Shown: positions 19,199 to 29,281 of the stretch, piece after piece
Layout of the letters: each line of letters begins with the position of its first letter
How positions within the stretch are numbered: position 1 is the stretch's first letter
Origin: Candidatus Limnocylindrales bacterium
GTDB lineage: Bacteria > Desulfobacterota > Binatia > UBA1149 > CAITLU01
Direction: 5' to 3'
NCBI GenBank assembly: GCA_035571835.1
Contig: DATNBU010000017.1
Location: 294,687 to 358,686 of the forward strand
DNA: 64,000 bases
Notes under the pieces: generated by a model
Seen by the model: the letters and a program-made list of their open reading frames with translations, nothing else
Databases searched by the model: none
Told to the model about the DNA's origin: nothing
Program-made: the position numbers and the translations under genes

Positions 19199-19601
19199 CC
19201 CAACAGGGATGGTCCACATGCCAGCCTTGGCCGCGTGAGACGCCGGTCGGTGGCGGGGACTGGCCCGACCAGCGTTCGAGGCCTTTGCTGCGGCTCGCGC
19301 GGCATCGCATTTGTCGACCGGCGAGATGCGCACGAGCGTAGACTTATCCTCTGCAACTCGATCAAAGCAGTTTTCAATGTGCGACGTTCGGAACAATGCG
19401 GGTACATGCGCAGCAGCATATTAGGTCAATTCTCGCATTCGATACCCGCGTGCGAGAAGGGGCTCGACATCTCTCCAGAACTTCCCGCGACGGGCAACTG
19501 GCGAATGGCATGAGCTTGTTTCAGATGCTCGCCGTGACCAAACCGTAATCGCGGCTTGGCGGATATCCCGTTCGCTAGGTATAGGAGATTTGAACTAGGC
19601 A
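19199..19601. other. Intergenic junction between the cco operon and the A/T-richer island, 403 bp
   Basis: Base composition falls visibly from about 19330 onwards, so the island edge probably lies here. No integrase, tRNA or clear target duplication was found. A weak promoter-like pair for the TIR gene is TTGGCG at 19556-19561 and TATAGG at 19580-19585, with an 18-base spacer; it is only a guess. The short open frames here are not protein-like. Confidence 0.35.
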
Positions 19602-20258
19602 ATGAAGACAGTATTTGTCAGTCACGCTACCACTGATCGACCGTTCGTCGAGGGTCAGCTCATTCCGTTCATGCACTCACACGGCTTGCAGACTTGGTAC
19701 TCGAAGGACGCCATCAGCACGGGAGCTCACTGGGAAAGGGCCATTCGCGCTGGTCTGCAGGCCTCGGACTGGTTTCTGCTTGTCGTCTCGCGAAGCGCGA
19801 TTGCCTCGGAATGGGTCGGTTGTGAAGTTGATTGGGCGCTGGAGAACCGGGCTTCTCGTCTGGTCCCCGTAGTCATTGCGGACGCGAGTGCAAGCGAGCT
19901 TCATCTTCGCCTGCGTCTGATTCAATCGGTAGATTGGAGATCATCGCCGTCTGAGGCGAAAAGGAAGTTGCTCGCAATATGGGGGATCTCCAGTCGTACA
20001 GAAAACGCTGACCCCGCCCGCCCGCATGAAGATCTAAAATTTGATGATTACTTGTACGCGCGACCAAAAAACTGGCACTGCATTTTTTGTGGATGGAAGT
20101 GCAACGAAGATTATAACGACTACCTCTGCAAGCAATGCAGCAAGATACGTCCATTCGTGGGCGGCTCGGCCACCATGGTCAAGTGTGGGTCATGTGAAGG
20201 TTATAGTCTTGGACTTGCTGAGTACTGCGAGTGGTGCGGCAAACGCTTTCGCGCGTAA
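19602..20258 (+). CDS. TIR-domain protein with C-terminal double zinc ribbon
   Basis: 218 residues. Residues 1-125 are a TIR domain: MKTVFVSHATTDRPFVEGQ (strand A), TWYSKDAISTGAHWERAI (BB loop region), SDWFLLVVSRSAIASEWVG and CEVDWALENRA. Glu75, in the WVxxE pattern, aligns with the catalytic Glu of TIR NAD-hydrolases. After a linker, residues 155-218 hold four CxxC pairs (CIFC, CKQC, CGSC, CEWC), two likely zinc ribbons that could bind nucleic acid or protein. Bacterial TIR proteins commonly act in anti-phage defence by destroying or converting NAD+. It is convergent with the kinase-TIR gene (132-base gap). Not long enough for any sensor beyond the zinc ribbons. Confidence 0.85.
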   Translation: MKTVFVSHATTDRPFVEGQLIPFMHSHGLQTWYSKDAISTGAHWERAIRAGLQASDWFLLVVSRSAIASEWVGCEVDWALENRASRLVPVVIADASASELHLRLRLIQSVDWRSSPSEAKRKLLAIWGISSRTENADPARPHEDLKFDDYLYARPKNWHCIFCGWKCNEDYNDYLCKQCSKIRPFVGGSATMVKCGSCEGYSLGLAEYCEWCGKRFRA

Positions 20259-20390
20259 CCCTTTCCTATCGAGGCACGTCTGATGGCGGCTGGGGTGCTC
20301 CAGCACTGCACATGCGGCTTACGCTTTTTCCCCGCGAGTACGCTCGAGGATCGATGATGCTGAATTGCCCGCGGCATCGACCGAAGCTTT

Positions 20391-23300
20391 TCAATTGGAT
20401 GTGGCGAGCGTTTGCTTCACCAGTTGAACGAGATCGGCAATTGCGTGATCCACATATACGTTCTGCTGGTCGAGAAGAAGAATCGCGTCGTAGTCTAGTA
20501 GAGCTTTTACTGCTGGGTCATCCGATGCGATGTTTTCGCGCTCGAATCCCTCCTGAAACACGGGGATCATAGGCCGGCCAAACTGATAAGCCGCCCCAAT
20601 CTCTTCCCGGACCCAGCGTGACTCCAGTGTTCCAGGTGCGAGCAAACAGACAAAGACCTCGCAATCCTGAATTGCGCGCAACAGTTTCTCGGGAAACCTG
20701 ACCGCACCGTCGAGCCGCTTGGTATCAACGAACGTCGCGATGCCATACGAGTCCTTGAGCTTGTCAGAAATAAAGCGGGCCGCCATTGAACTCTTCTCAC
20801 GGTTGTAACTGAGGAAAACCGGCGGCGCGTTATCCGATCGCAGTTTTCCATTGAGAGACGAATCGAATGCCTTGAAGAATATTTCCATCGACTCAAAGCG
20901 CTTCTGCGGATCAGTAGCTAAGCCGCGCTCCAGCACGTTGGACAACGGCGCGGGGAAATCTGGCCAACGATTTCGCTTCGCCTCCTCGTGAGCTTTCGTA
21001 GGGCCACGAAGGAAATTGCGCGCTCGCTGCTGGGGATCGTTCTGTCCATGAAACGGACGCGAACCGGTCACCAGAAGGTAAGCAAGAGCCGCAAGAGCGA
21101 ACTGGTCGCTGCTCGCCGTCGCCGATTCCGCGTCCCACTGTTCGGGCGCCATGAAAGCGGGTACCCCGGTAACAGGACTGCGACCCGCGCTAACCGAGCT
21201 GACAAAATCTGTAAGATACGCGTTCTCTTCGGCATCGAAACAGACGGCCGTCGGCTTCAAGTTGCCGTGGACCATGTTCTGGCGGTGTGCGTATGTTAGC
21301 GCGCTGGAGAGTTGCTGCATCCATTTGACGATCAAATTCCGCGCGATCGGTTGCGTAGGCAAGAGTCGATCGGCCAGATTGCCGCCGTCCATAAGTGTCG
21401 AACACAGGTAAGGTATTCGAAGAGATTTCCCTTCGACCGTAATCTCTGCCGTCCCATAATCGCGAACGGAGCATATATGAGGATGTTGAAGTTGCTGTGC
21501 AATTCTGGCCTCTCGTTCAAAGTCTTCGCAGTATCCCGCGTAGTTCGTTAGCTCTGCTGAGAGCAATTTAATGGCGACCTTTCCTCCGCGCGTGTCGTCG
21601 GCACTGTAAACCGCACTCTTAGCGCTCGATCGAAGACAAGTGCCGAGATTGTAGCGGCTAGCGATCGTGTGCCCGGTGAGATCCGGCAGGGTGGTGTCCA
21701 GAGCGTGGCGGAACGTAAAAACCGTGTTTCCGATCCGGATGCTGGCGCCGAAGAACAATGGTGTCTCCTCCTCCGCCACGATTCGTCGGCCATTCATGAA
21801 AGTACCGTTCGTGCTTCCGAGATCGAGGATTACAAACCCCGAATCGACGCGGCGAACTCGTGCGTGGCGTCGAGAAAGTTCCGGATCGGAGAACCGAAGG
21901 TCACAGCCCGCATCGCGTCCGATCTCGAATTCTGATCGAGCGATTGCGTAGCTGCGCCCGACTGAACCTGCGTCACTCGATTCTGTGATTACGATCTGCG
22001 CCTGACTGGAGCTCGTAGGCGTGACCATCTGCGTAGGGTCAAATGCGCTCTCGGCGGCGGATGCTTTGCCCGCAGCAACGGCATGCGGATTAGCCGGCGG
22101 CGTTCGGAGAGGCGCGGACGGTGCGATTCGAGTCGCGTCGCCCGTGTCTACGGGATCTGACCCGTCGTGCGTCGCAATCTCGACGCGCTCTGGCGTCGGT
22201 TTGTCGCTATTCCGGGGAGGGTTTTTTTCCGACTCAGGATTCAGGTTGGGCGACGGAGGCGTCTGTCGTTCAACGCGGCCCAAGGCTGCAACAAAGGCGC
22301 CGCCAATCGCACGAAGTCGCGCAAATAGCCTGAAAACAGGCTGACCAGTCTGAAGATTTGACCCTTCGCGATTCTCGACGTCCGGCCTTTCGCGAACAGA
22401 ACCACGCCTCGCGTTTTGCGCAAACGGCGCAATTATACGCTCACGGGTTCGCTCAGCGTGCTCTCGTAGTGCGGAAACACGCGCGGCTTGGTCGGCTGTC
22501 GGTGGGATGTCCTCGACTTGGTCGAGAATAGTCAGGCAGAGCGCAACGTCACCTGTTTCAAGCGCTACATTCGCATCATCGATGAGACGGTGGGCTAGAA
22601 GCTGACGTCGCTGCGAGGCCTCGAACTCGCGCGCCTCTTCGAGTATCGCACGAACCGAAGAGTGTTCAGGGAGTTCCAGAAGGATCGCCTCGCATCTGGA
22701 GATGACCTCCGTCGCGTTTCCAATCCGTAGCATCCCCTTCAGCGCGGGCATTTCAGATTCGAGTTCGTGCGCCCGAATGATGCCGCGCCGCAACGCATTG
22801 AGTCGGGAATCGAGTTGGCCTTCCAAATCCTGCAAGGTTTGGAGGCCGATCTGGCGACCGGCGCTAACATCGACTGCTTCGGCAATGGCACTGCCGACTC
22901 GCTTCTCGAACGATTTCTGAAGCTTTTGCAGCTCCGAAAGTCGAGGGGCTAGTTTCTGGCGTAGCTTCCCAGCTTCTGATCTTAGACGATCAAGAACCGA
23001 CTCGAGCTCGAACTTCATCTCGTCAAGGTCGGCAAATCGATCAGTAGCCTCCCTTCGAATGGCACGCTCAACGATGACTGCGAGATCCTCCGGTATCTTC
23101 TGATCGAGGCTCCGTAGCGGCGGGATCTTTGCCGATCGAATATGATCCAGAAGCTCTATCGGATCGTCGCCTTGGAACGGTGGCCGATAAGCGAGCATCT
23201 CGTAGCAAACCGCGCCGAGGGAATACTGGTCGGACCTCGCATCAGCGCGACCACGAACCTGCTCTGGCGACATATACTTCAGGGTGCCCATGATCATTCC

Positions 23301-23792
23301 GGTACGTGTCGAAGACGTGGACGCCGTCATCTTCGCGATTCCGAAATCAATGATCTTGACGCGACCATCGCGTTGAACGATCACATTGCCTGGCTTGACG
23401 TCGCGATGAATTATTCCCTGACTGTGTGCATAAAAGAGCGCATCGCAGAGCTGGATCATGATCCAGACTTTTTCTTCTATGTCGATCTTGACGTGATCAG
23501 CGAGGAGCCGCTTGAGTTCCTGACCCTCGAGAAGCTCCATTACAATGAAGATGCGGTCATCTTCTTCTCCGACATCGTATATTGTGACGATGTTTTGATG
23601 GCGGAGACCGGCACACGCCTGTGCCTCTGAGATGAATCGGGTTCGAAGTTCGTCGTTGGTTTCGACGTCTGGCGAAATCGATTTTAGGGCAACGAAACGA
23701 TTCAGACGTGAATCGCGCGCCTTGTAGACCGTGCCCATGCCGCCACGGCCAATTCGTTCAACAAGCTCATATTTTCCTATACTCTCGGCCAT
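20391..23792 (-). CDS. Ser/Thr kinase - FHA - pseudokinase - TIR fusion protein
   Basis: 1133 residues. Residues 8-270 are a PknB-type kinase with intact motifs: GRGGMG, Lys37 in VALK, HRD (129-131), DFG (149-151) and SPEQ. Residues 270-460 are charged and helical, probably coiled coil. A Pro/Ser-rich linker (about 505-610) leads to an FHA domain (612-695; GRD, SRRHARV, GSTNGT), which binds phosphothreonine peptides. Residues 713-980 are a second kinase fold that keeps Lys742 (VAIK) and APEQW but has HGN in place of HRD (842-844) and lacks the DFG glycine (DFV), so it is likely a pseudokinase. Residues 990-1090 are a TIR domain (PPVFLSYNREKSSMA, ESRWVREEIGAAY) with Glu1064 at the NADase catalytic position. 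No membrane segment. The parts suggest phosphorylation-controlled TIR activity; that function is inferred. Confidence 0.88.
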   Translation of the reverse strand: MAESIGKYELVERIGRGGMGTVYKARDSRLNRFVALKSISPDVETNDELRTRFISEAQACAGLRHQNIVTIYDVGEEDDRIFIVMELLEGQELKRLLADHVKIDIEEKVWIMIQLCDALFYAHSQGIIHRDVKPGNVIVQRDGRVKIIDFGIAKMTASTSSTRTGMIMGTLKYMSPEQVRGRADARSDQYSLGAVCYEMLAYRPPFQGDDPIELLDHIRSAKIPPLRSLDQKIPEDLAVIVERAIRREATDRFADLDEMKFELESVLDRLRSEAGKLRQKLAPRLSELQKLQKSFEKRVGSAIAEAVDVSAGRQIGLQTLQDLEGQLDSRLNALRRGIIRAHELESEMPALKGMLRIGNATEVISRCEAILLELPEHSSVRAILEEAREFEASQRRQLLAHRLIDDANVALETGDVALCLTILDQVEDIPPTADQAARVSALREHAERTRERIIAPFAQNARRGSVRERPDVENREGSNLQTGQPVFRLFARLRAIGGAFVAALGRVERQTPPSPNLNPESEKNPPRNSDKPTPERVEIATHDGSDPVDTGDATRIAPSAPLRTPPANPHAVAAGKASAAESAFDPTQMVTPTSSSQAQIVITESSDAGSVGRSYAIARSEFEIGRDAGCDLRFSDPELSRRHARVRRVDSGFVILDLGSTNGTFMNGRRIVAEEETPLFFGASIRIGNTVFTFRHALDTTLPDLTGHTIASRYNLGTCLRSSAKSAVYSADDTRGGKVAIKLLSAELTNYAGYCEDFEREARIAQQLQHPHICSVRDYGTAEITVEGKSLRIPYLCSTLMDGGNLADRLLPTQPIARNLIVKWMQQLSSALTYAHRQNMVHGNLKPTAVCFDAEENAYLTDFVSSVSAGRSPVTGVPAFMAPEQWDAESATASSDQFALAALAYLLVTGSRPFHGQNDPQQRARNFLRGPTKAHEEAKRNRWPDFPAPLSNVLERGLATDPQKRFESMEIFFKAFDSSLNGKLRSDNAPPVFLSYNREKSSMAARFISDKLKDSYGIATFVDTKRLDGAVRFPEKLLRAIQDCEVFVCLLAPGTLESRWVREEIGAAYQFGRPMIPVFQEGFERENIASDDPAVKALLDYDAILLLDQQNVYVDHAIADLVQLVKQTLATSN

Positions 23793-23980
23793 CTGAAGAG
23801 CTCCGGGCGATTGTGAATCGGGAGTTTAATGGACGTCGCGTTCGTTAGTCGAGCTCTGCTCGCGGCCCAAGCCTACGGAAGAGTCGAGGAGGTGTCGGCA
23901 GTCACCTCGATCCGATTTCGCCGCATTTTCCTCGCCAGGATATATTCCCTCCACCTTAAATCGGTGGCCGTGCGGTTCGC

Positions 23981-24856
23981 CTACTCATCCAGTTTTGCCA
24001 TCCACCCACGGTTTTCCGCGGAGATCACGTCTTCGCACTGTCGGACGAATTCTGACCACGCCGCACCCGAAGCATTCGTCTTTAGTGCACGCCATTCGGC
24101 GAGAAGATCGGTGAGCTGTCGGGCAGTCGCCGCAAACGTGGTAGCTTGGAAGTCATAGCGGCTTGCAGCTGCATGAGCCGTTATGGCTCCGGTGACCGTC
24201 GTGACCACGGCGACCCAGGGACCCAAAACGATTTTTGAATCCGATCCGACGGCGGTAACGATTCCACCCATCACGGCGGCGGCTAGTCCTAGAGCAAGTT
24301 CGATCAGCCTGTATTGCTCCGCGCGGGTCGCATTCCAGACCGATTTTGGGCGATAGTAAGAATTGATCTGTTCGTCGATTCGGAGATTCAAGTAATCTTC
24401 CGGCTTGGTGAAAGATGGAGCGGCCATTTTGATCTCACCCGTTTTTGCGCGCGCAAGCTCTAGCCCCATTCCCCATTCACGAATTTCTTTGCATTTTGTG
24501 CGGAGGGCGGCCGCCGGATCCGTGAGCGATGCGTACTTGTCGACCTGAGCGAGAAATTGGAAGACCTCGGTTTTGATGGCTTCCGATATCGATCGAGCAC
24601 GTTGCCAACAACTTGTGTGTTCTCGCGAGAGGAAATTCGCCGTCACAAATGGTGCTACTGTCAGACAAGCTGCGCCTGCTGCCGCAATTCTCGTGTTACC
24701 ACCGAACGAAGCCGCAAGGGTCTGCAATAGTGCACCGCTCGCTGTAAGTACCAAGACGGCTGTTCGGGAAATCGCGATTGAACGTTTGAGCCGATCTGCG
24801 GTAACTGACCATCCAACATGTTCATTCCATTGCGCACGCACGTCGGCCTGACTCAC
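23981..24856 (-). CDS. SLATT/DUF4231-like membrane protein with two helix pairs
   Basis: 291 residues, GTG start. Two pairs of membrane helices are visible at about 29-50 and 55-76, and at 186-204 and 210-231. The second half follows the SLATT pattern: an amphipathic lead (IDEQINSYYRPKSVWN), two helices, a soluble helical part, then FVRQCEDVISAENRGWMAKL, which matches the ExxI..E...W ending of that family. SLATT proteins are predicted pore-forming effectors of nucleotide-dependent conflict systems. It reads in the same direction as the kinase-TIR gene and lies 188 bases upstream of it, so they may share a transcript. Family assignment is by motif and topology only. Confidence 0.65.
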   Translation of the reverse strand: MSQADVRAQWNEHVGWSVTADRLKRSIAISRTAVLVLTASGALLQTLAASFGGNTRIAAAGAACLTVAPFVTANFLSREHTSCWQRARSISEAIKTEVFQFLAQVDKYASLTDPAAALRTKCKEIREWGMGLELARAKTGEIKMAAPSFTKPEDYLNLRIDEQINSYYRPKSVWNATRAEQYRLIELALGLAAAVMGGIVTAVGSDSKIVLGPWVAVVTTVTGAITAHAAASRYDFQATTFAATARQLTDLLAEWRALKTNASGAAWSEFVRQCEDVISAENRGWMAKLDE

Positions 24857-25357
24857 GGCTGGTCCTCAAGGCGTCGACTATTGCGGGTCGCAGATAGGCC
24901 ACTCAGTGGGTATTGCATAGAGTCCTTTCCACCCGATTGTAATCCGCGTTATCGATCTGGCTTAAGCTATGGATTTCTATTCAAGTGTCTGCGTGTGTAG
25001 AACCGCAATGACGGTCTGCGGCCGAGCTAATGTGCCAAGTCTGCAATCCTAAGGAAACGTCTGCAGTTTCATGTCCCGTCATGCCTTGAGTCTGCCCTCA
25101 ACTTGCACGATTGGACGCGTCGTCGACCTGGCAACGTGCGCATCCGAACGCGACAGCAGGTAGATGCTGGCTGTAGGGCTCATTGGCGGGACCTCAACCC
25201 TGCAGCTTTTGTGCACGGAGTACAGACTATCGGACAGGGAACCGAAGATCGCAGCAGCGCGTACGCAACGGAAATGCCCGCTGGAATTCCTCTGTGGCCG
25301 TCTGACTAAATCACCTTGCGAAGGACCTTGCTTGCAAAGCCACGAGCGGCGCAGCCA
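24857..25357. other. Gene-free right flank of the island, 501 bp
   Basis: Lies between the start of the SLATT-like gene and the stop of the CotH gene. Moderately A/T rich on the left, returning to G/C-rich sequence near 25320. Open frames here lack protein-like composition. It must hold the promoter of the SLATT-like gene. No tRNA, repeat or convincing terminator seen. Confidence 0.4.
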
Positions 25358-28300
25358 TCAGTCTGCGACCGGCACCGCCGGCACGCACAGCTCGGCTTCG
25401 CGCGACGTCGAAAAGATCGATTCCGCAAACAGATCGGCAGCGTTCACGCCGAGCGCCGGGATGTGCACGGGCGATAGTTTGCTGCGGGCCGCCTTGTAGC
25501 AGAGCAGGTGCCGTCCCGGCGTCTTGACCGGGCCGTCGACGGCGGCCGGCACGCAGACCTGGGTCGGCGGACGCAGCACGTAATCGCGCGACTCGAACAG
25601 ATCCTCGAAGTGCACCTGCGCGTTCGGCGGGAAGTAGCGCGGCAGGTTCTTCGACAGCGACGCGCGGTAGCACTTGTAGAAGTCGACGCCGTGCGAACCG
25701 AAGTCCGGCGACGAAACCGGCGCCGCCAGATCGATGACGGCCGGCGCAAGCAGGCGAAGCGGCTTGCCGATGTCGAGATAGAACGGACCGAGCGCGCTGT
25801 CGTAGTGCTGCGCGAAGAGCGGCACGTGCAAAGGCTCGCCGTCGATCGGCTTCAGCGGATACGACCGCAGATGCGTCGAGTCGTCGATCGCCGCGGTGCC
25901 GTCGCGTTCGCCGGCAACGCAGATCGATTGCGCGACCGGCAGCTCGTAGCTGACCGCGCCGTCGAGCTCGTCGTCGATCGTGATCTCGACCGGCGCGAAC
26001 GGCTGGCCCTGCTTCGCGGCGTAGCAAAGGAAGCTGTCGCCGGCGTCCGGTGCTTCCGTGGCGTGCGACGCCGACGAACACTGCAGGTCGGCCATGTCGA
26101 TGGTTCCGTCGGCGTCGTTGTCGATGCCGTCGTTGCACTCGGGCACCTCGGTCTCGGCGCTTGCGCCCGCACACCCGGCGTCTGCAAGGTCGATGAAGCC
26201 GTCTCCATCGTCGTCGATGCCGTTCGAACAATGCGGCGGTTCCACCGAACCGGGCGTACCGGCGTTCATCGCGCTCGCCTTCCAGCCCGACGCGAGTCCC
26301 CACGCCGAAAGGTCGGCCGTCGCATCGCGAATGACGAGCGACCTTCCGGGACCGTCGGTCGACGGATACCACGCGTCGTCGTACTCGAAATCGTGGATCA
26401 CCGAGTTGTCGGCGGCCACGAGCGTGATGCGCTCGCCGCCGTTGTCGAGGCGCCCGCTGTACTGTCCGAGCACCGGATGGCCGGGTCCGTAAACTGCCGG
26501 GAACGTCGTCGTGCTCTCGACCGCAACCGCAACTGCTCCCGCGCCGAGCATCGTCGCGGGGAAGTTGAACGTGACGCCGGCAGTCAGGCGCACGCCGGCA
26601 AGGCTCACCGGCGACGCGCTGATGTTGCGGATCTCCAGGTATTCGGCCCCGGTGCCGGCCGACGGATTGTACATGAGCTCGGTGATGCGCAGCGGCGATA
26701 CCGGCGTGAACGCGGTGTCGGAGATTGCGCTCCACACATTGCCGGACGAAAGCGCGCGCGCGCGGATCGTAACCGCTGCGCTCAGCGTGATCGCTCCGGA
26801 GTACGGACTTGCCGACGGTGAGACCGCGCCGCCGGGAATGCGCGGATCGCTGCCGTCGGTGGTTACCCAGATGACGGCTCCGGCCGGCCCCGAGATCGTG
26901 ACCTGATCACCGGCGAAGAACTGGCCGCCGTTTTTCGAGAATTCCGGTGCATCGACGGACGGATACAGGCCGGCGCTGCGGAACTGGTCGACCTGGATGC
27001 GCGTGCGCGCCGGAAAGTAGTTGAGCAGCAGCCGCTGGTTCTCGGCGATCCATTCGATGTCGCGCGTGTACGGGATCGTGCGGCGATGATCGCCCCAGCG
27101 CGCCGATTCGCCGACGATGGCGTGGTAGATCTGGTCGCGGCGCTTGCGCCAGCGCACCTTGGCGGCTTCCGGTGTCAGCGCACCGCCGTTGAAGAAGTGC
27201 TTGTGCACGCGATCGGCGAACGCGAGGCGGAACTCCGGGCTCTTGCGCAGGTTCGCGTAGACCGCGCCTGGCGTGTCGATGGCTCCGAGGCTCACGCGAT
27301 TGGCGTTCGGCGAGTTGAACGTGTCCTCGCCGTCCCAGTTGAAGAAGCGGAATCCGGCTCCGGCCTCGCGCTTCCGGCCGGCGTACCAGTTCTTCTCCGG
27401 CCAGTCGTAGTTGGCTGCGTAGATGTTCGAGATCATGTAGTCGGAGAAGTTGTCGACGTCGAGGTACTGGCGCACGGCATCGTAGCCGGCGAGCGTCTCG
27501 ACCGGTCCGGCCGCGAGATCCTGCAGCGTGTCCCACGAATTGCGGTCGCCGTCGATGACCTTGCCGGCGTTGAGCGCATCGTAGTCTTCTTCGACGCCGC
27601 CGAAGTACGACGCGAGGAACGGACCGCTCGGCCTTTCGGTCGGACGGTACATGCCCCAGTAACGGCCGTTGATGAACAGCTGCACGTACGTCGTGTGCGC
27701 CGAGGCCTGTCCCATCGCGAGCTGCGTGTCCTTGAGCCACGTGTCGCGAATGTATTCGGCGCGTGAGAAGCCGGCCGGCCACGAATTGCCGTGCGTGGCC
27801 GTCAGCGTGATCGTATCGAAGCTGTCGACCGGCGAGTCCGGGAAGAACGGATAGACGAGCTTGGACGGCCCGTAGATGCTCTTGAACAGCAGCCGCAGCG
27901 AGTATTTGCCCATGTCCGAAAGGCGGCTGACGCCGCCCTGGATGCGAATTCCGCAATTGATCTGGAAGCCCGCCGCGCCGTCGTCGCGGATCATTTCGAC
28001 CGAGGTCGGCCGTTCCCACTCCACACCGGTGCCGAGGCGGTGGTTGTAGATCCCGTTCTGCGGTCCGAACAGGTGATCGACGTCGGTGACGATCGAAAGT
28101 GCCGGGATCGCCTTGAGATCGCCGATGATCTCGGATGCATAGCGCGGGTCGTTTACGACATCCGGATCCATGTCGTAGTCGGCTCCGGCGAAGAGATACT
28201 CCGGCGGCTGGTCGGCAATGGTCTGCGTCAGGATGTCATTGAGATAGATGTACGTGTGCGTGACCGACGGCGTCGGATCGAGCCCCGGACCGAACGCCAT

Positions 28301-29008
28301 TGCGCGGATCATCGCGTTGGTCGTCACGCTGATCGGCGCTGTGTACGGGGTGCCGTGCGTGGGCGTCGGATCACTGCCGTCGGTCGTATAGTTGATCGTC
28401 GCGCCGGGTGTCGCCGTCGAGATCGTGACCGCAATCGGCGCGTCGTAGTAGCCGCGCGCCGGACTGAACGTGACCGGTGCGGTCGTCACGCAGTCCGCAG
28501 TTTCGTTGTTGGCCGCGCCGGGCGTCGGAATGATGAAGCAGCGCTCGGTGACGAGGTCGGATGCGAGACCGTAGCTGCGGTCGGTCGACATCGCCGGAAA
28601 CGACGGAACGTATTCGTCGATCACGGTCGTGCCGTCGGCTGCGATCAGTCCGAGATACTCTCCGCTCGACGAGAGCTTGAAGTTGGTGTGCAGCGGCTGC
28701 CCGGAGACCTGACGGTTCTTGTCGGACGTCCAGACGATCAGGTACTGGCCGGCGCCGAGTGTGGTTGCCGGGAATTGCCATTTGGTCGGCAGCGACTCGT
28801 CGTCGGTCAGGTACATGCCGCCGAGATTCGCGGTCGACGCGCTGTTGTTGAAGATCTCGACCCAGTCCGAATACTCGCCGTCCTCGTCGGTGATCGTCGT
28901 AGCGTTGGAAGCCATCAGCTCGGAGATCACGAGCGCTCGCGCCTCGCACGGAAGGAGAAACAGCGCAGCGAAAACGGCCGCGAACGGGCGAAGCGAGAAT
29001 GGACGCAT
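25358..29008 (-). CDS. Large exported CotH-kinase / lamin-tail protein
   Basis: 1216 residues. The ATG at 29008 is chosen over one nine codons upstream because GGAGGG lies four bases before it and it begins a signal peptide (MRPFSLRPFAAVFAALFLL). Order of domains: lamin-tail (LVISELMASN, about 25-140), chitobiase C-terminal-like (TINYTTDGSDPTPT), CotH (about 270-640; GIRIQGGVSR, GKYSLRLLFK, NGRYWGMYRPTERP, FRFFNWDGEDTF), a second chitobiase-type domain (WVTTDGSDPR), a second lamin-tail (LRITELMYNPS), two EF-like CxNGIDDDGDG repeats, and a 230-residue C-terminal module with paired FLCYAAK/LLCYKAA motifs. CotH proteins can be secreted protein kinases; the others are surface-binding modules. Confidence 0.88.
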   Translation of the reverse strand: MRPFSLRPFAAVFAALFLLPCEARALVISELMASNATTITDEDGEYSDWVEIFNNSASTANLGGMYLTDDESLPTKWQFPATTLGAGQYLIVWTSDKNRQVSGQPLHTNFKLSSSGEYLGLIAADGTTVIDEYVPSFPAMSTDRSYGLASDLVTERCFIIPTPGAANNETADCVTTAPVTFSPARGYYDAPIAVTISTATPGATINYTTDGSDPTPTHGTPYTAPISVTTNAMIRAMAFGPGLDPTPSVTHTYIYLNDILTQTIADQPPEYLFAGADYDMDPDVVNDPRYASEIIGDLKAIPALSIVTDVDHLFGPQNGIYNHRLGTGVEWERPTSVEMIRDDGAAGFQINCGIRIQGGVSRLSDMGKYSLRLLFKSIYGPSKLVYPFFPDSPVDSFDTITLTATHGNSWPAGFSRAEYIRDTWLKDTQLAMGQASAHTTYVQLFINGRYWGMYRPTERPSGPFLASYFGGVEEDYDALNAGKVIDGDRNSWDTLQDLAAGPVETLAGYDAVRQYLDVDNFSDYMISNIYAANYDWPEKNWYAGRKREAGAGFRFFNWDGEDTFNSPNANRVSLGAIDTPGAVYANLRKSPEFRLAFADRVHKHFFNGGALTPEAAKVRWRKRRDQIYHAIVGESARWGDHRRTIPYTRDIEWIAENQRLLLNYFPARTRIQVDQFRSAGLYPSVDAPEFSKNGGQFFAGDQVTISGPAGAVIWVTTDGSDPRIPGGAVSPSASPYSGAITLSAAVTIRARALSSGNVWSAISDTAFTPVSPLRITELMYNPSAGTGAEYLEIRNISASPVSLAGVRLTAGVTFNFPATMLGAGAVAVAVESTTTFPAVYGPGHPVLGQYSGRLDNGGERITLVAADNSVIHDFEYDDAWYPSTDGPGRSLVIRDATADLSAWGLASGWKASAMNAGTPGSVEPPHCSNGIDDDGDGFIDLADAGCAGASAETEVPECNDGIDNDADGTIDMADLQCSSASHATEAPDAGDSFLCYAAKQGQPFAPVEITIDDELDGAVSYELPVAQSICVAGERDGTAAIDDSTHLRSYPLKPIDGEPLHVPLFAQHYDSALGPFYLDIGKPLRLLAPAVIDLAAPVSSPDFGSHGVDFYKCYRASLSKNLPRYFPPNAQVHFEDLFESRDYVLRPPTQVCVPAAVDGPVKTPGRHLLCYKAARSKLSPVHIPALGVNAADLFAESIFSTSREAELCVPAVPVAD

Positions 29009-29281
29009 GGATCCCTCCGGAAGCGAGTTGGGCAACCGGTTCTATCGCCCCGGCCGGGCCTGAGTAAACCGACTATTCAGATTGGCCCGGCGGACGATTC
29101 CGAACCGCCCGTCGCAGACGAAAAACCCGGAAAATGTGATGCAGTCCTCGTGACTTTTCGACGGCCGTGGCGGCGTTCCAGGACCCGATGCTGTTCGCAA
29201 CGCCGCGGAAACACTCCGTCATTCCGTGGCTGGCCGCGGCGCTGCCAGGCTGTAATCTCGGTCGCTTTGGAGCGGCCGAGC

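What the first reader, a model, noticed from the sequence alone, without database searches (positions are those of the whole stretch)
20391..23792. Kinase, FHA, pseudokinase and TIR fused in a single 1133-residue protein
An intact PknB-like kinase, a phosphothreonine-binding FHA domain, a kinase fold with HGN instead of HRD, and a C-terminal TIR with the NADase Glu are in one chain. One model is that kinase and FHA sense or relay a signal, the pseudokinase acts as a switch, and TIR depletes NAD+. I know of kinases and TIRs separately in bacterial defence but not this order of domains.
Basis: partly seen in the sequence, partly recalled or inferred. Interest (0 to 1): 0.87.

Follow-up and report, generated by a model that had tools for sequence, protein, structure and literature searches.

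The report
Kinase-gated TIR protein with pore partner
A bacterium carries, on a foreign-looking stretch of DNA, a single protein joining a working-looking kinase, a phosphate reader, a dead kinase and an NAD-cutting TIR enzyme, next to a membrane protein that often accompanies TIR enzymes elsewhere, which suggests a self-contained immune switch controlled by phosphorylation.

Summary
Window 20391-23792 (-) encodes 1133 aa with Pkinase 8-252, FHA 623-688, a second kinase fold with HGN/DFV in place of HRD/DFG, and TIR_2 992-1082. E1064 aligns with the WV..E glutamate of SARM1 (its name E642 is recalled) and is invariant in 13 of 13 TIRs. Among 139 distinct TIR cores in the fetched loci, only this one shares a frame with a kinase.

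The gene lies in a ~6 kb low-GC island with a TIR-zinc-ribbon gene and a four-TM DUF4231+SLATT gene. Relatives of that SLATT protein sit directly beside a TIR gene in 7 of 10 loci opened (5 of 8 counting one plasmid type once), once with two ThsB-like proteins. Best reading: a TIR-SLATT (Thoeris-like) conflict system whose TIR is gated by an in-chain kinase/FHA/pseudokinase unit. The N-terminal half comes from a genus-type STK family.

It is a new variant of a predicted kind. NADase activity, gating and defence are inferred, and the architecture is a singleton here.

The parts
20391..23792 (-). P0001: kinase / helical region / FHA / pseudokinase / TIR protein, 1133 aa
   Evidence: ORF; Pfam
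23037..23771 (-). N-terminal PknB-like Ser/Thr kinase, residues 8-252, catalytic motifs complete (D131 at 23400-23402)
   Evidence: Pkinase; motifs
22353..22982 (-). region 271-480 (helical, inferred), shared with a genus-type STK family
   Evidence: no Pfam match for 271-599
21963..22457 (-). Ala/Arg/Pro-rich linker 446-610 with DATRI (552-556) and DPTQM (585-589), candidate phospho-Thr sites (inference)
21729..21926 (-). FHA domain, residues 623-688, pThr-binding residues present
   Evidence: FHA; motifs
20886..21656 (-). pseudokinase, residues 713-969; HGN at 21261-21269
   Evidence: second Pkinase stretch; motifs; model matches PknB 5u94, Z 30.3, 260 aligned, rmsd 2.2
20394..20840 (-). TIR domain, residues 985-1133; candidate catalytic Glu1064 at 20601-20603
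   Evidence: TIR_2; SARM1 alignment; Glu invariant in 13 of 13
23981..24856 (-). P0002: DUF4231 + SLATT_1 protein, 291 aa, four hydrophobic segments; candidate membrane effector, upstream on the same strand
   Evidence: Pfam, NCBIfam SLATT_1 2.6e-29, hydropathy, TIR neighbours of relatives
19602..20258 (+). P0003: TIR_2 (4-123) plus four C-terminal CxxC pairs (zinc-ribbon-like), 218 aa; Glu75 in the W+4 position; convergent with P0001
   Evidence: Pfam 1.5e-20; cysteines and Glu
19300..25300 (.). low-GC island (1-kb windows 0.54-0.60 against 0.63-0.71 outside) holding the three genes

Best explanation
The three low-GC genes form a horizontally acquired conflict (probably anti-phage) cassette of the TIR-SLATT type that works like Thoeris. 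P0001 is its sensor and signal-making enzyme. The N-terminal kinase and the helical region detect an infection-linked cue. The kinase phosphorylates threonines in the linker or in partner proteins. The in-chain FHA domain reads the phospho-threonine and rearranges or multimerises the chain, and the kinase-dead domain next to the TIR works as the clamp or scaffold that transmits this. The freed or clustered TIR then cleaves NAD+ into an ADP-ribose-type product. The four-TM DUF4231+SLATT protein P0002 responds by opening the membrane, stopping growth or killing the infected cell. P0003, a second TIR with zinc ribbons, is a further signal maker or regulator. Shown: domains, residues, island, recurrent TIR/SLATT adjacency. 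Inferred: activities, order of events, trigger, defence role.
For: Domains and residues. Low-GC island against high-GC flanks. The conserved Cco block ends at the island; in the stretches of G001, G002 and G006 that carry this block, the cassette proteins gave no match at 1e-15. SLATT relatives lie directly beside TIR genes in 7 of 10 loci opened: Caballeronia (nSTAND1-WD40 protein; TIR is the record's label, with a PADLOC bSEFIR match at residues 8-64; the Pfam table was cut at 25 of 46 rows), Streptomyces, E. coli, Klebsiella and Salmonella 5.2 kb plasmids, G363 and G453. In G453 the partners match PADLOC ThsB models at 7.6e-66 and 1.7e-56. Published prediction that SLATT is an ADPr-derivative-regulated membrane effector and recurs with TIR in firmicute phages (PMC9503650, passages); also PMC7159879 (passages).
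Against: 3 of 10 SLATT loci have no adjacent TIR (Rhizobium, TIR gene about 5.5 kb off; G030 and G421, G421 on a 7.3 kb contig). The enterobacterial SLATT proteins are only about 20% identical to P0002 (E near 1e-4) and were reached through the Caballeronia protein; counting only loci found with P0002 itself the adjacency is 4 of 6. The architecture is a singleton: no conservation supports the joint action of kinase, FHA and TIR. P0001 and P0002 are 188 bp apart, not overlapping. None of ten flanking ORFs given to Pfam is a recognised defence gene. P0002 gave no PADLOC match and its model was poor (mean pLDDT 49.7). No activity was tested.
Confidence: 0.52

Rival explanations
1. P0001 is a stand-alone NADase effector: kinase and FHA relay a signal, the pseudokinase releases the TIR, and NAD+ depletion itself kills the cell; P0002 is an independent or regulatory membrane gene.
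For: The TIR is closest in the PDB to SARM1, an NAD+ hydrolase (E 3.1e-10), with the Glu aligned; phosphorylation-linked gating by FHA is plausible from the domains.
Against: Does not explain why DUF4231+SLATT relatives recur beside TIR genes, including ThsB-type TIRs, which in Thoeris make a signal for a partner (PMC9503650, passage).
Confidence: 0.27
2. An ordinary signalling protein: a member of the genus's STK family that gained FHA, a second kinase and a TIR used as a scaffold, with a physiological rather than immune role.
For: Residues 1-446 are 65% identical to a chromosomal STK in the same genome; family members in both genomes of the genus lie near PP2C phosphatases.
Against: Low-GC island unlike three paralogs measured (GC3 0.59 against 0.76-0.80); no PP2C among the neighbours tested; SLATT and a second TIR as neighbours; intact TIR Glu.
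Confidence: 0.14
3. Chimera, mis-assembly or decaying gene.
For: Only one copy was found in the searches made.
Against: One open frame of 1133 codons with similar GC3 in all six segments (0.58-0.62), on a 382 kb contig; intact motifs in kinase 1, FHA and TIR.
Confidence: 0.03

Closest known systems
TIR-SLATT gene pairs predicted in conflict systems (PMC9503650; PMC7159879; passages read)
   Same: A TIR gene beside a SLATT gene; the same adjacency was seen here in Caballeronia, Streptomyces, enterobacterial plasmids, G363, G453
   Different: Here the TIR is fused behind kinase-helical-FHA-pseudokinase; the partner carries DUF4231 as well as SLATT_1, so four hydrophobic segments rather than two
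Thoeris (ThsA/ThsB)
   Same: TIR enzyme beside a partner effector; in G453 the TIRs beside the SLATT gene are ThsB-like; P0001's TIR segment alone passes Pfam's ThsB_TIR cut-off by a hair (21.5 against 21.2 bits)
   Different: No SIR2-SLOG ThsA in the cassette; NCBIfam's Thoeris type III ThcB4 model scores 47.9 against a cut-off of 220; the TIR is closest to SARM1 in the PDB
nSTAND1-WD40 gene clusters with TIR and DUF4231/SLATT (Caballeronia pNK84, G363)
   Same: The SLATT partner is 33-36% identical to P0002, beside a TIR-annotated nSTAND1-WD40 gene or a TIR-TPR gene with an nSTAND1-WD40 gene next to it
   Different: There a STAND NTPase with a propeller is the likely sensor; here a kinase/FHA/pseudokinase unit
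PknB-type STKs of the same genus with PP2C nearby
   Same: Kinase and helical half of P0001, 65% identity over 1-446 to the closest full-length paralog
   Different: Six such kinases gave no FHA or TIR in Pfam at 0.001
PD-T4-6 and other PADLOC kinase models
   Same: Kinase domain matches
   Different: Generic kinase similarity; in the 25 of 40 rows shown the best stretch covers the first kinase only

Membership tests
Hanks-type Ser/Thr kinase (N-terminal domain) | kinase fold with Lys, HRD, Asn and DFG | tested here: met
Stk1/PASTA kinase (NCBIfam NF033483) | extracellular PASTA domains | tested here: not met
   whole-protein score 472.8 passes the 450 cut-off with two stretches, best 6-279, but no PASTA in Pfam
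Pseudokinase (second kinase domain) | kinase fold lacking catalytic Asp and metal Asn | tested here: met
   HGN, A849, DFV; fold Z 30.3 to PknB
Pseudokinase (second kinase domain) | no phosphotransfer activity | not testable with these tools
   needs assay; K742 and D862 are kept, so nucleotide binding is possible
NADase-type TIR | TIR domain with catalytic Glu | tested here: met
   TIR_2 over cut-off; E1064 aligned with SARM1, 13 of 13. By sequence only: the TIR part of the model was pLDDT about 50-75 and the fold lists were filled by the kinase
NADase-type TIR | cleaves NAD+ | not testable with these tools
   needs assay
TIR-SLATT conflict system | TIR gene adjacent to a SLATT gene | tested here: met
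   adjacency in 7 of 10 other loci opened
TIR-SLATT conflict system | SLATT gated by an ADPr-type signal | not testable with these tools
   prediction in PMC9503650 (passages)
Thoeris | ThsA with SIR2-SLOG (classical type) | tested here: not met
   no SIR2 or SLOG in the three cassette proteins
Thoeris | ThsB-type TIR | tested here: inconclusive
   P0001's TIR segment 21.5 bits against a ThsB_TIR cut-off of 21.2, but 17 bits as whole protein; P0003 18.5 bits and PADLOC ThsB 1.1e-5; P0001's PADLOC table was cut at 25 of 40 rows
GAP1-N1 / MoxR-vWA conflict systems | GAP1 GTPase or vWA/MoxR genes | tested here: not met
   absent from the cassette proteins and from ten flanking ORFs

The most novel reading that the evidence does not exclude
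A one-chain phospho-switch immune receptor: an active kinase phosphorylates its own linker (two D-x-T-[RQ]-[IM] sites just before the FHA), the FHA captures the phosphothreonine in cis or between chains, and the kinase-dead domain converts this into TIR activation whose product opens a DUF4231/SLATT channel. Kinase, reader, pseudokinase and NAD-signal enzyme would stand in for the STAND NTPase sensor found beside the same SLATT partner elsewhere.
Probability: 0.28. Interest if true: 0.8.

Novelty: new variant of a known kind. Interest (0 to 1): 0.63.

Why it matters
Bacterial TIR enzymes are known to be gated by STAND ATPases, Argonautes, CARF or STING-type sensors (from general knowledge and the abstracts listed). 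If protein phosphorylation gates a bacterial TIR, Ser/Thr kinases and NAD-derived immune signals would be joined in one molecule. One protein would then test whether phosphorylation is an input to TIR immunity, whether a bacterial pseudokinase can act as an allosteric switch, and whether SLATT proteins are the membrane effectors of TIR signals, as has been predicted.

Tried and rejected
Rejected: assembly chimera (GC3 uniform along the gene). Naming it a PASTA kinase or PD-T4-6: scores come from generic kinase similarity. Naming it Thoeris: no SIR2-SLOG ThsA. A kinase linked to SLATT elsewhere: none of the six loci scanned there had a kinase hit.

Led nowhere: viral-contig scans for the FHA-pseudokinase-TIR part and for P0002 gave no relative (short peptide patterns, close relatives only). 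The genome-contig scan used six short peptides; its five loci match the kinase part alone (within residues 15-277 of a 434-aa query). tblastn of the TIR against plasmids: none at 1e-5; of the whole protein: 0 of 1009 matching plasmid records reach 80% coverage. No tRNA in the window. Between the two island flanks the longest shared direct word is 10 bases and inverted 12, while 200 shuffles gave 8-12, so no element boundary is shown. The far-flank LTD/CotH gene had no match in G001 at 1e-20, so no clean empty site was shown. The P0002 model is too poor to use. In the P0001 model the FHA part is under pLDDT 50, and the fold lists are filled by the kinase domain, so no TIR or FHA fold match is claimed. 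The D-x-T motif was chosen after looking at the linker; 1 of 2000 shuffles had two or more, so it is only a lead.

Limits of the uniqueness claim: the 148 genomes of the class that the tool returned and samples of 297 and 345 of the phylum were searched; other phyla could not be used as a centre. Only TIR frames of about 440 aa or more were fetched on purpose for the fusion test, and the match list was cut. In one search my TIR profile found nothing in 3 of the 50 loci L041-L090 (L073, L078, L085); one search showed no kinase frame in them. Kinase-TIR fusions in other phyla are not excluded; I recall such combinations being listed in domain databases but saw them in no call. Literature: ten searches ran; no title or abstract in the rows listed describes a kinase-FHA-TIR protein, but several lists were cut. 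Five papers were opened: passages of PMC7159879, PMC8195603, PMC9122126 and PMC9503650, and abstract, outline and passages of PMC13174449; none was read whole.
Full report
OBSERVATION. The frame at 20391-23792 (-) is real and intact: 1133 codons from ATG. Pfam gives Pkinase 8-252 with a second kinase stretch, FHA 623-688 and TIR_2 992-1082, over curated cut-offs; searched apart, the pieces score 1.2e-29 (second kinase), 3.4e-19 (FHA) and 3.7e-14 (TIR_2). Kinase 1 has all catalytic motifs. The second has HGN for HRD, Ala for the metal Asn, DFV for DFG and a degenerate glycine loop, but keeps the Lys and the Asp of DFV. In the alignment of eleven kinases one other, from a planctomycete (L032), also has HGN. 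A structure model of residues 600-1133 puts its residues 107-382 on PknB with Z 30.3, 260 aligned, rmsd 2.2, so the second fold is a kinase.

TIR. The best PDB relatives by sequence are SARM1 chains (3.1e-10), then nematode tir-1; Cat1 is at 0.026. The alignment puts E1064 at the Glu of SARM1's WV..E motif (the name E642 and its catalytic role are recalled). The same Glu is invariant in 13 of 13 TIRs aligned. This makes an NAD+-cleaving TIR likely but does not prove it.

ORIGIN OF THE PARTS. Residues 1-446 are 65% identical to a 1138-aa STK of the same genome and about 51% to a 1224-aa one; a third matches the kinase alone at 71%. The region 271-480 found relatives in 2 of 148 genomes of the class, this one and its only same-genus genome. 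Family members lie near PP2C phosphatases in both. So P0001 combines a genus-type kinase half with a different C-terminal half. Its GC3 (0.59) is unlike three paralogs measured (0.76-0.80), so a simple recent duplication in this genome does not explain it.

ISLAND AND PARTNERS. In 1-kb windows GC falls from 0.67-0.71 to 0.54-0.60 across about 19.3-25.3 kb and rises again to 0.63 and more. Three genes with family matches lie inside: P0003 (TIR plus four CxxC pairs), P0001, and P0002 (DUF4231 16-113 and SLATT_1 155-285, four hydrophobic segments). On the left is a Cco/FixI-type block that is conserved in G001, G002 and G006; in the stretches of those genomes that I fetched the cassette proteins gave no match. 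The right flank is not conserved, so the insertion site is not defined.

SLATT NEIGHBOURS. I opened ten loci with relatives of P0002, besides its own. A TIR gene is the direct neighbour in seven: Caballeronia pNK84, Streptomyces plasmid, E. coli, Klebsiella and Salmonella plasmids of 5.2 kb, G363 and G453. The three enterobacterial plasmids are one type, so five of eight. They are distant (about 20% identity to P0002) and were reached through the Caballeronia protein; of the six loci found with P0002 itself, four have the adjacent TIR. The three misses are Rhizobium (TIR gene about 5.5 kb away), G030 and G421. Two further E. coli plasmid hits were not opened. TIR genes are few per genome (65 of 148 class genomes have a TIR_2 match, at most 15 in one), so this adjacency is hardly chance. 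In G453 the SLATT gene overlaps a ThsB_TIR gene that overlaps a second TIR gene, all three at GC 0.38-0.42 in a 0.59 locus; the TIR partners match PADLOC ThsB models at 7.6e-66 and 1.7e-56. In Caballeronia the adjacent gene is annotated TIR and carries nSTAND1 and WD40; Pfam's rows shown (25 of 46) do not include TIR, PADLOC lists bSEFIR at residues 8-64. In G363 the order is TIR/SIR2_2, nSTAND1-WD40, TIR-TPR, SLATT. The sensor side varies while the SLATT partner stays, and here the sensor side is the kinase/FHA/pseudokinase unit.

RARITY. In the 97 relatives other than its own genome no match at 1e-15 to residues 600-1133 went beyond the kinase part. In 4149 frames from 199 loci, 139 distinct TIR cores were found, 105 of them in frames of 400 aa or more; the only frames with both kinase and TIR were two partial copies of the window's own gene. 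Earlier tests of the phylum's and the class's TIR loci agree. No plasmid record covers 80% of the protein (0 of 1009). Other phyla were not surveyed by whole genome.

MECHANISM. Published work predicts SLATT as an ADPr-derivative-regulated membrane effector and reports TIR next to 2TM SLATT in firmicute phages (PMC9503650, passages) and SLATT beside TIR or PNPase effectors in GAP1-N1 systems (PMC7159879, passages). The latter also notes mostly inactive S/T/Y kinases and sporadic FHA domains among effectors of conflict systems. STAND-FGS systems can carry TIR, kinase or FHA among alternative N-terminal domains (PMC8195603, passages). Combining this with the anatomy, I favour a kinase-gated TIR whose product opens P0002. 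The linker holds DATRI and DPTQM before the FHA, candidate phosphosites; this is inference and was picked after the fact. NCBIfam also lists FhaB and OdhI models over the FHA and the stretch before it, below their cut-offs; that OdhI is controlled by FHA binding of its own phosphothreonine is recalled.

VERDICT. Observation confirmed; interpretation partly supported. It is a new variant of the predicted TIR-SLATT kind and works like Thoeris without meeting its membership test (no SIR2-SLOG ThsA; ThsB type inconclusive). Conservation is absent, so the functional claim rests on intact motifs and on the recurrent partner.

Noticed in passing
L092, L095, L105, L106, L111, L112 (class genomes G383, G030, G413, G090, G092, G096): Pairs of small adjacent TIR frames of 138-204 aa in tandem, related to P0003's TIR, in six genera of the class; G005 has two TIRs in one 307-aa frame.
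   Followed up: no
L167, L168, L169 (E. coli, Klebsiella, Salmonella 5.2 kb plasmids): A tiny mobilizable plasmid type carries a DUF4231/SLATT gene convergent with a TIR gene (ThsB_TIR in the E. coli copy tested): a compact test bed for the TIR-SLATT idea.
   Followed up: partly
L165 6962-8888: Three overlapping low-GC genes, SLATT plus two ThsB-like TIRs, with no ThsA among them: a Thoeris-like operon with a SLATT partner.
   Followed up: partly
L164 5353-14380: Cluster TIR/SIR2_2, nSTAND1-WD40, TIR-TPR, SLATT.
   Followed up: partly
L032 2494-3564: A planctomycete kinase-fold protein also has HGN instead of HRD.
   Followed up: no
P0001 against NCBIfam NF033483: With two kinase stretches the whole-protein score passes the PASTA-kinase cut-off although no PASTA domain is present, so automatic naming could mislabel this protein.
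   Followed up: yes
L010 and L009 (own genome C2): A chromosomal cluster with several related STKs, a PP2C fused to a cNMP-binding domain, and weak FHA matches nearby.
   Followed up: partly
window 25358-29035 (-): Large LTD/CotH/chitobiase-C protein beside the island, with a 48% relative in G003.
   Followed up: no
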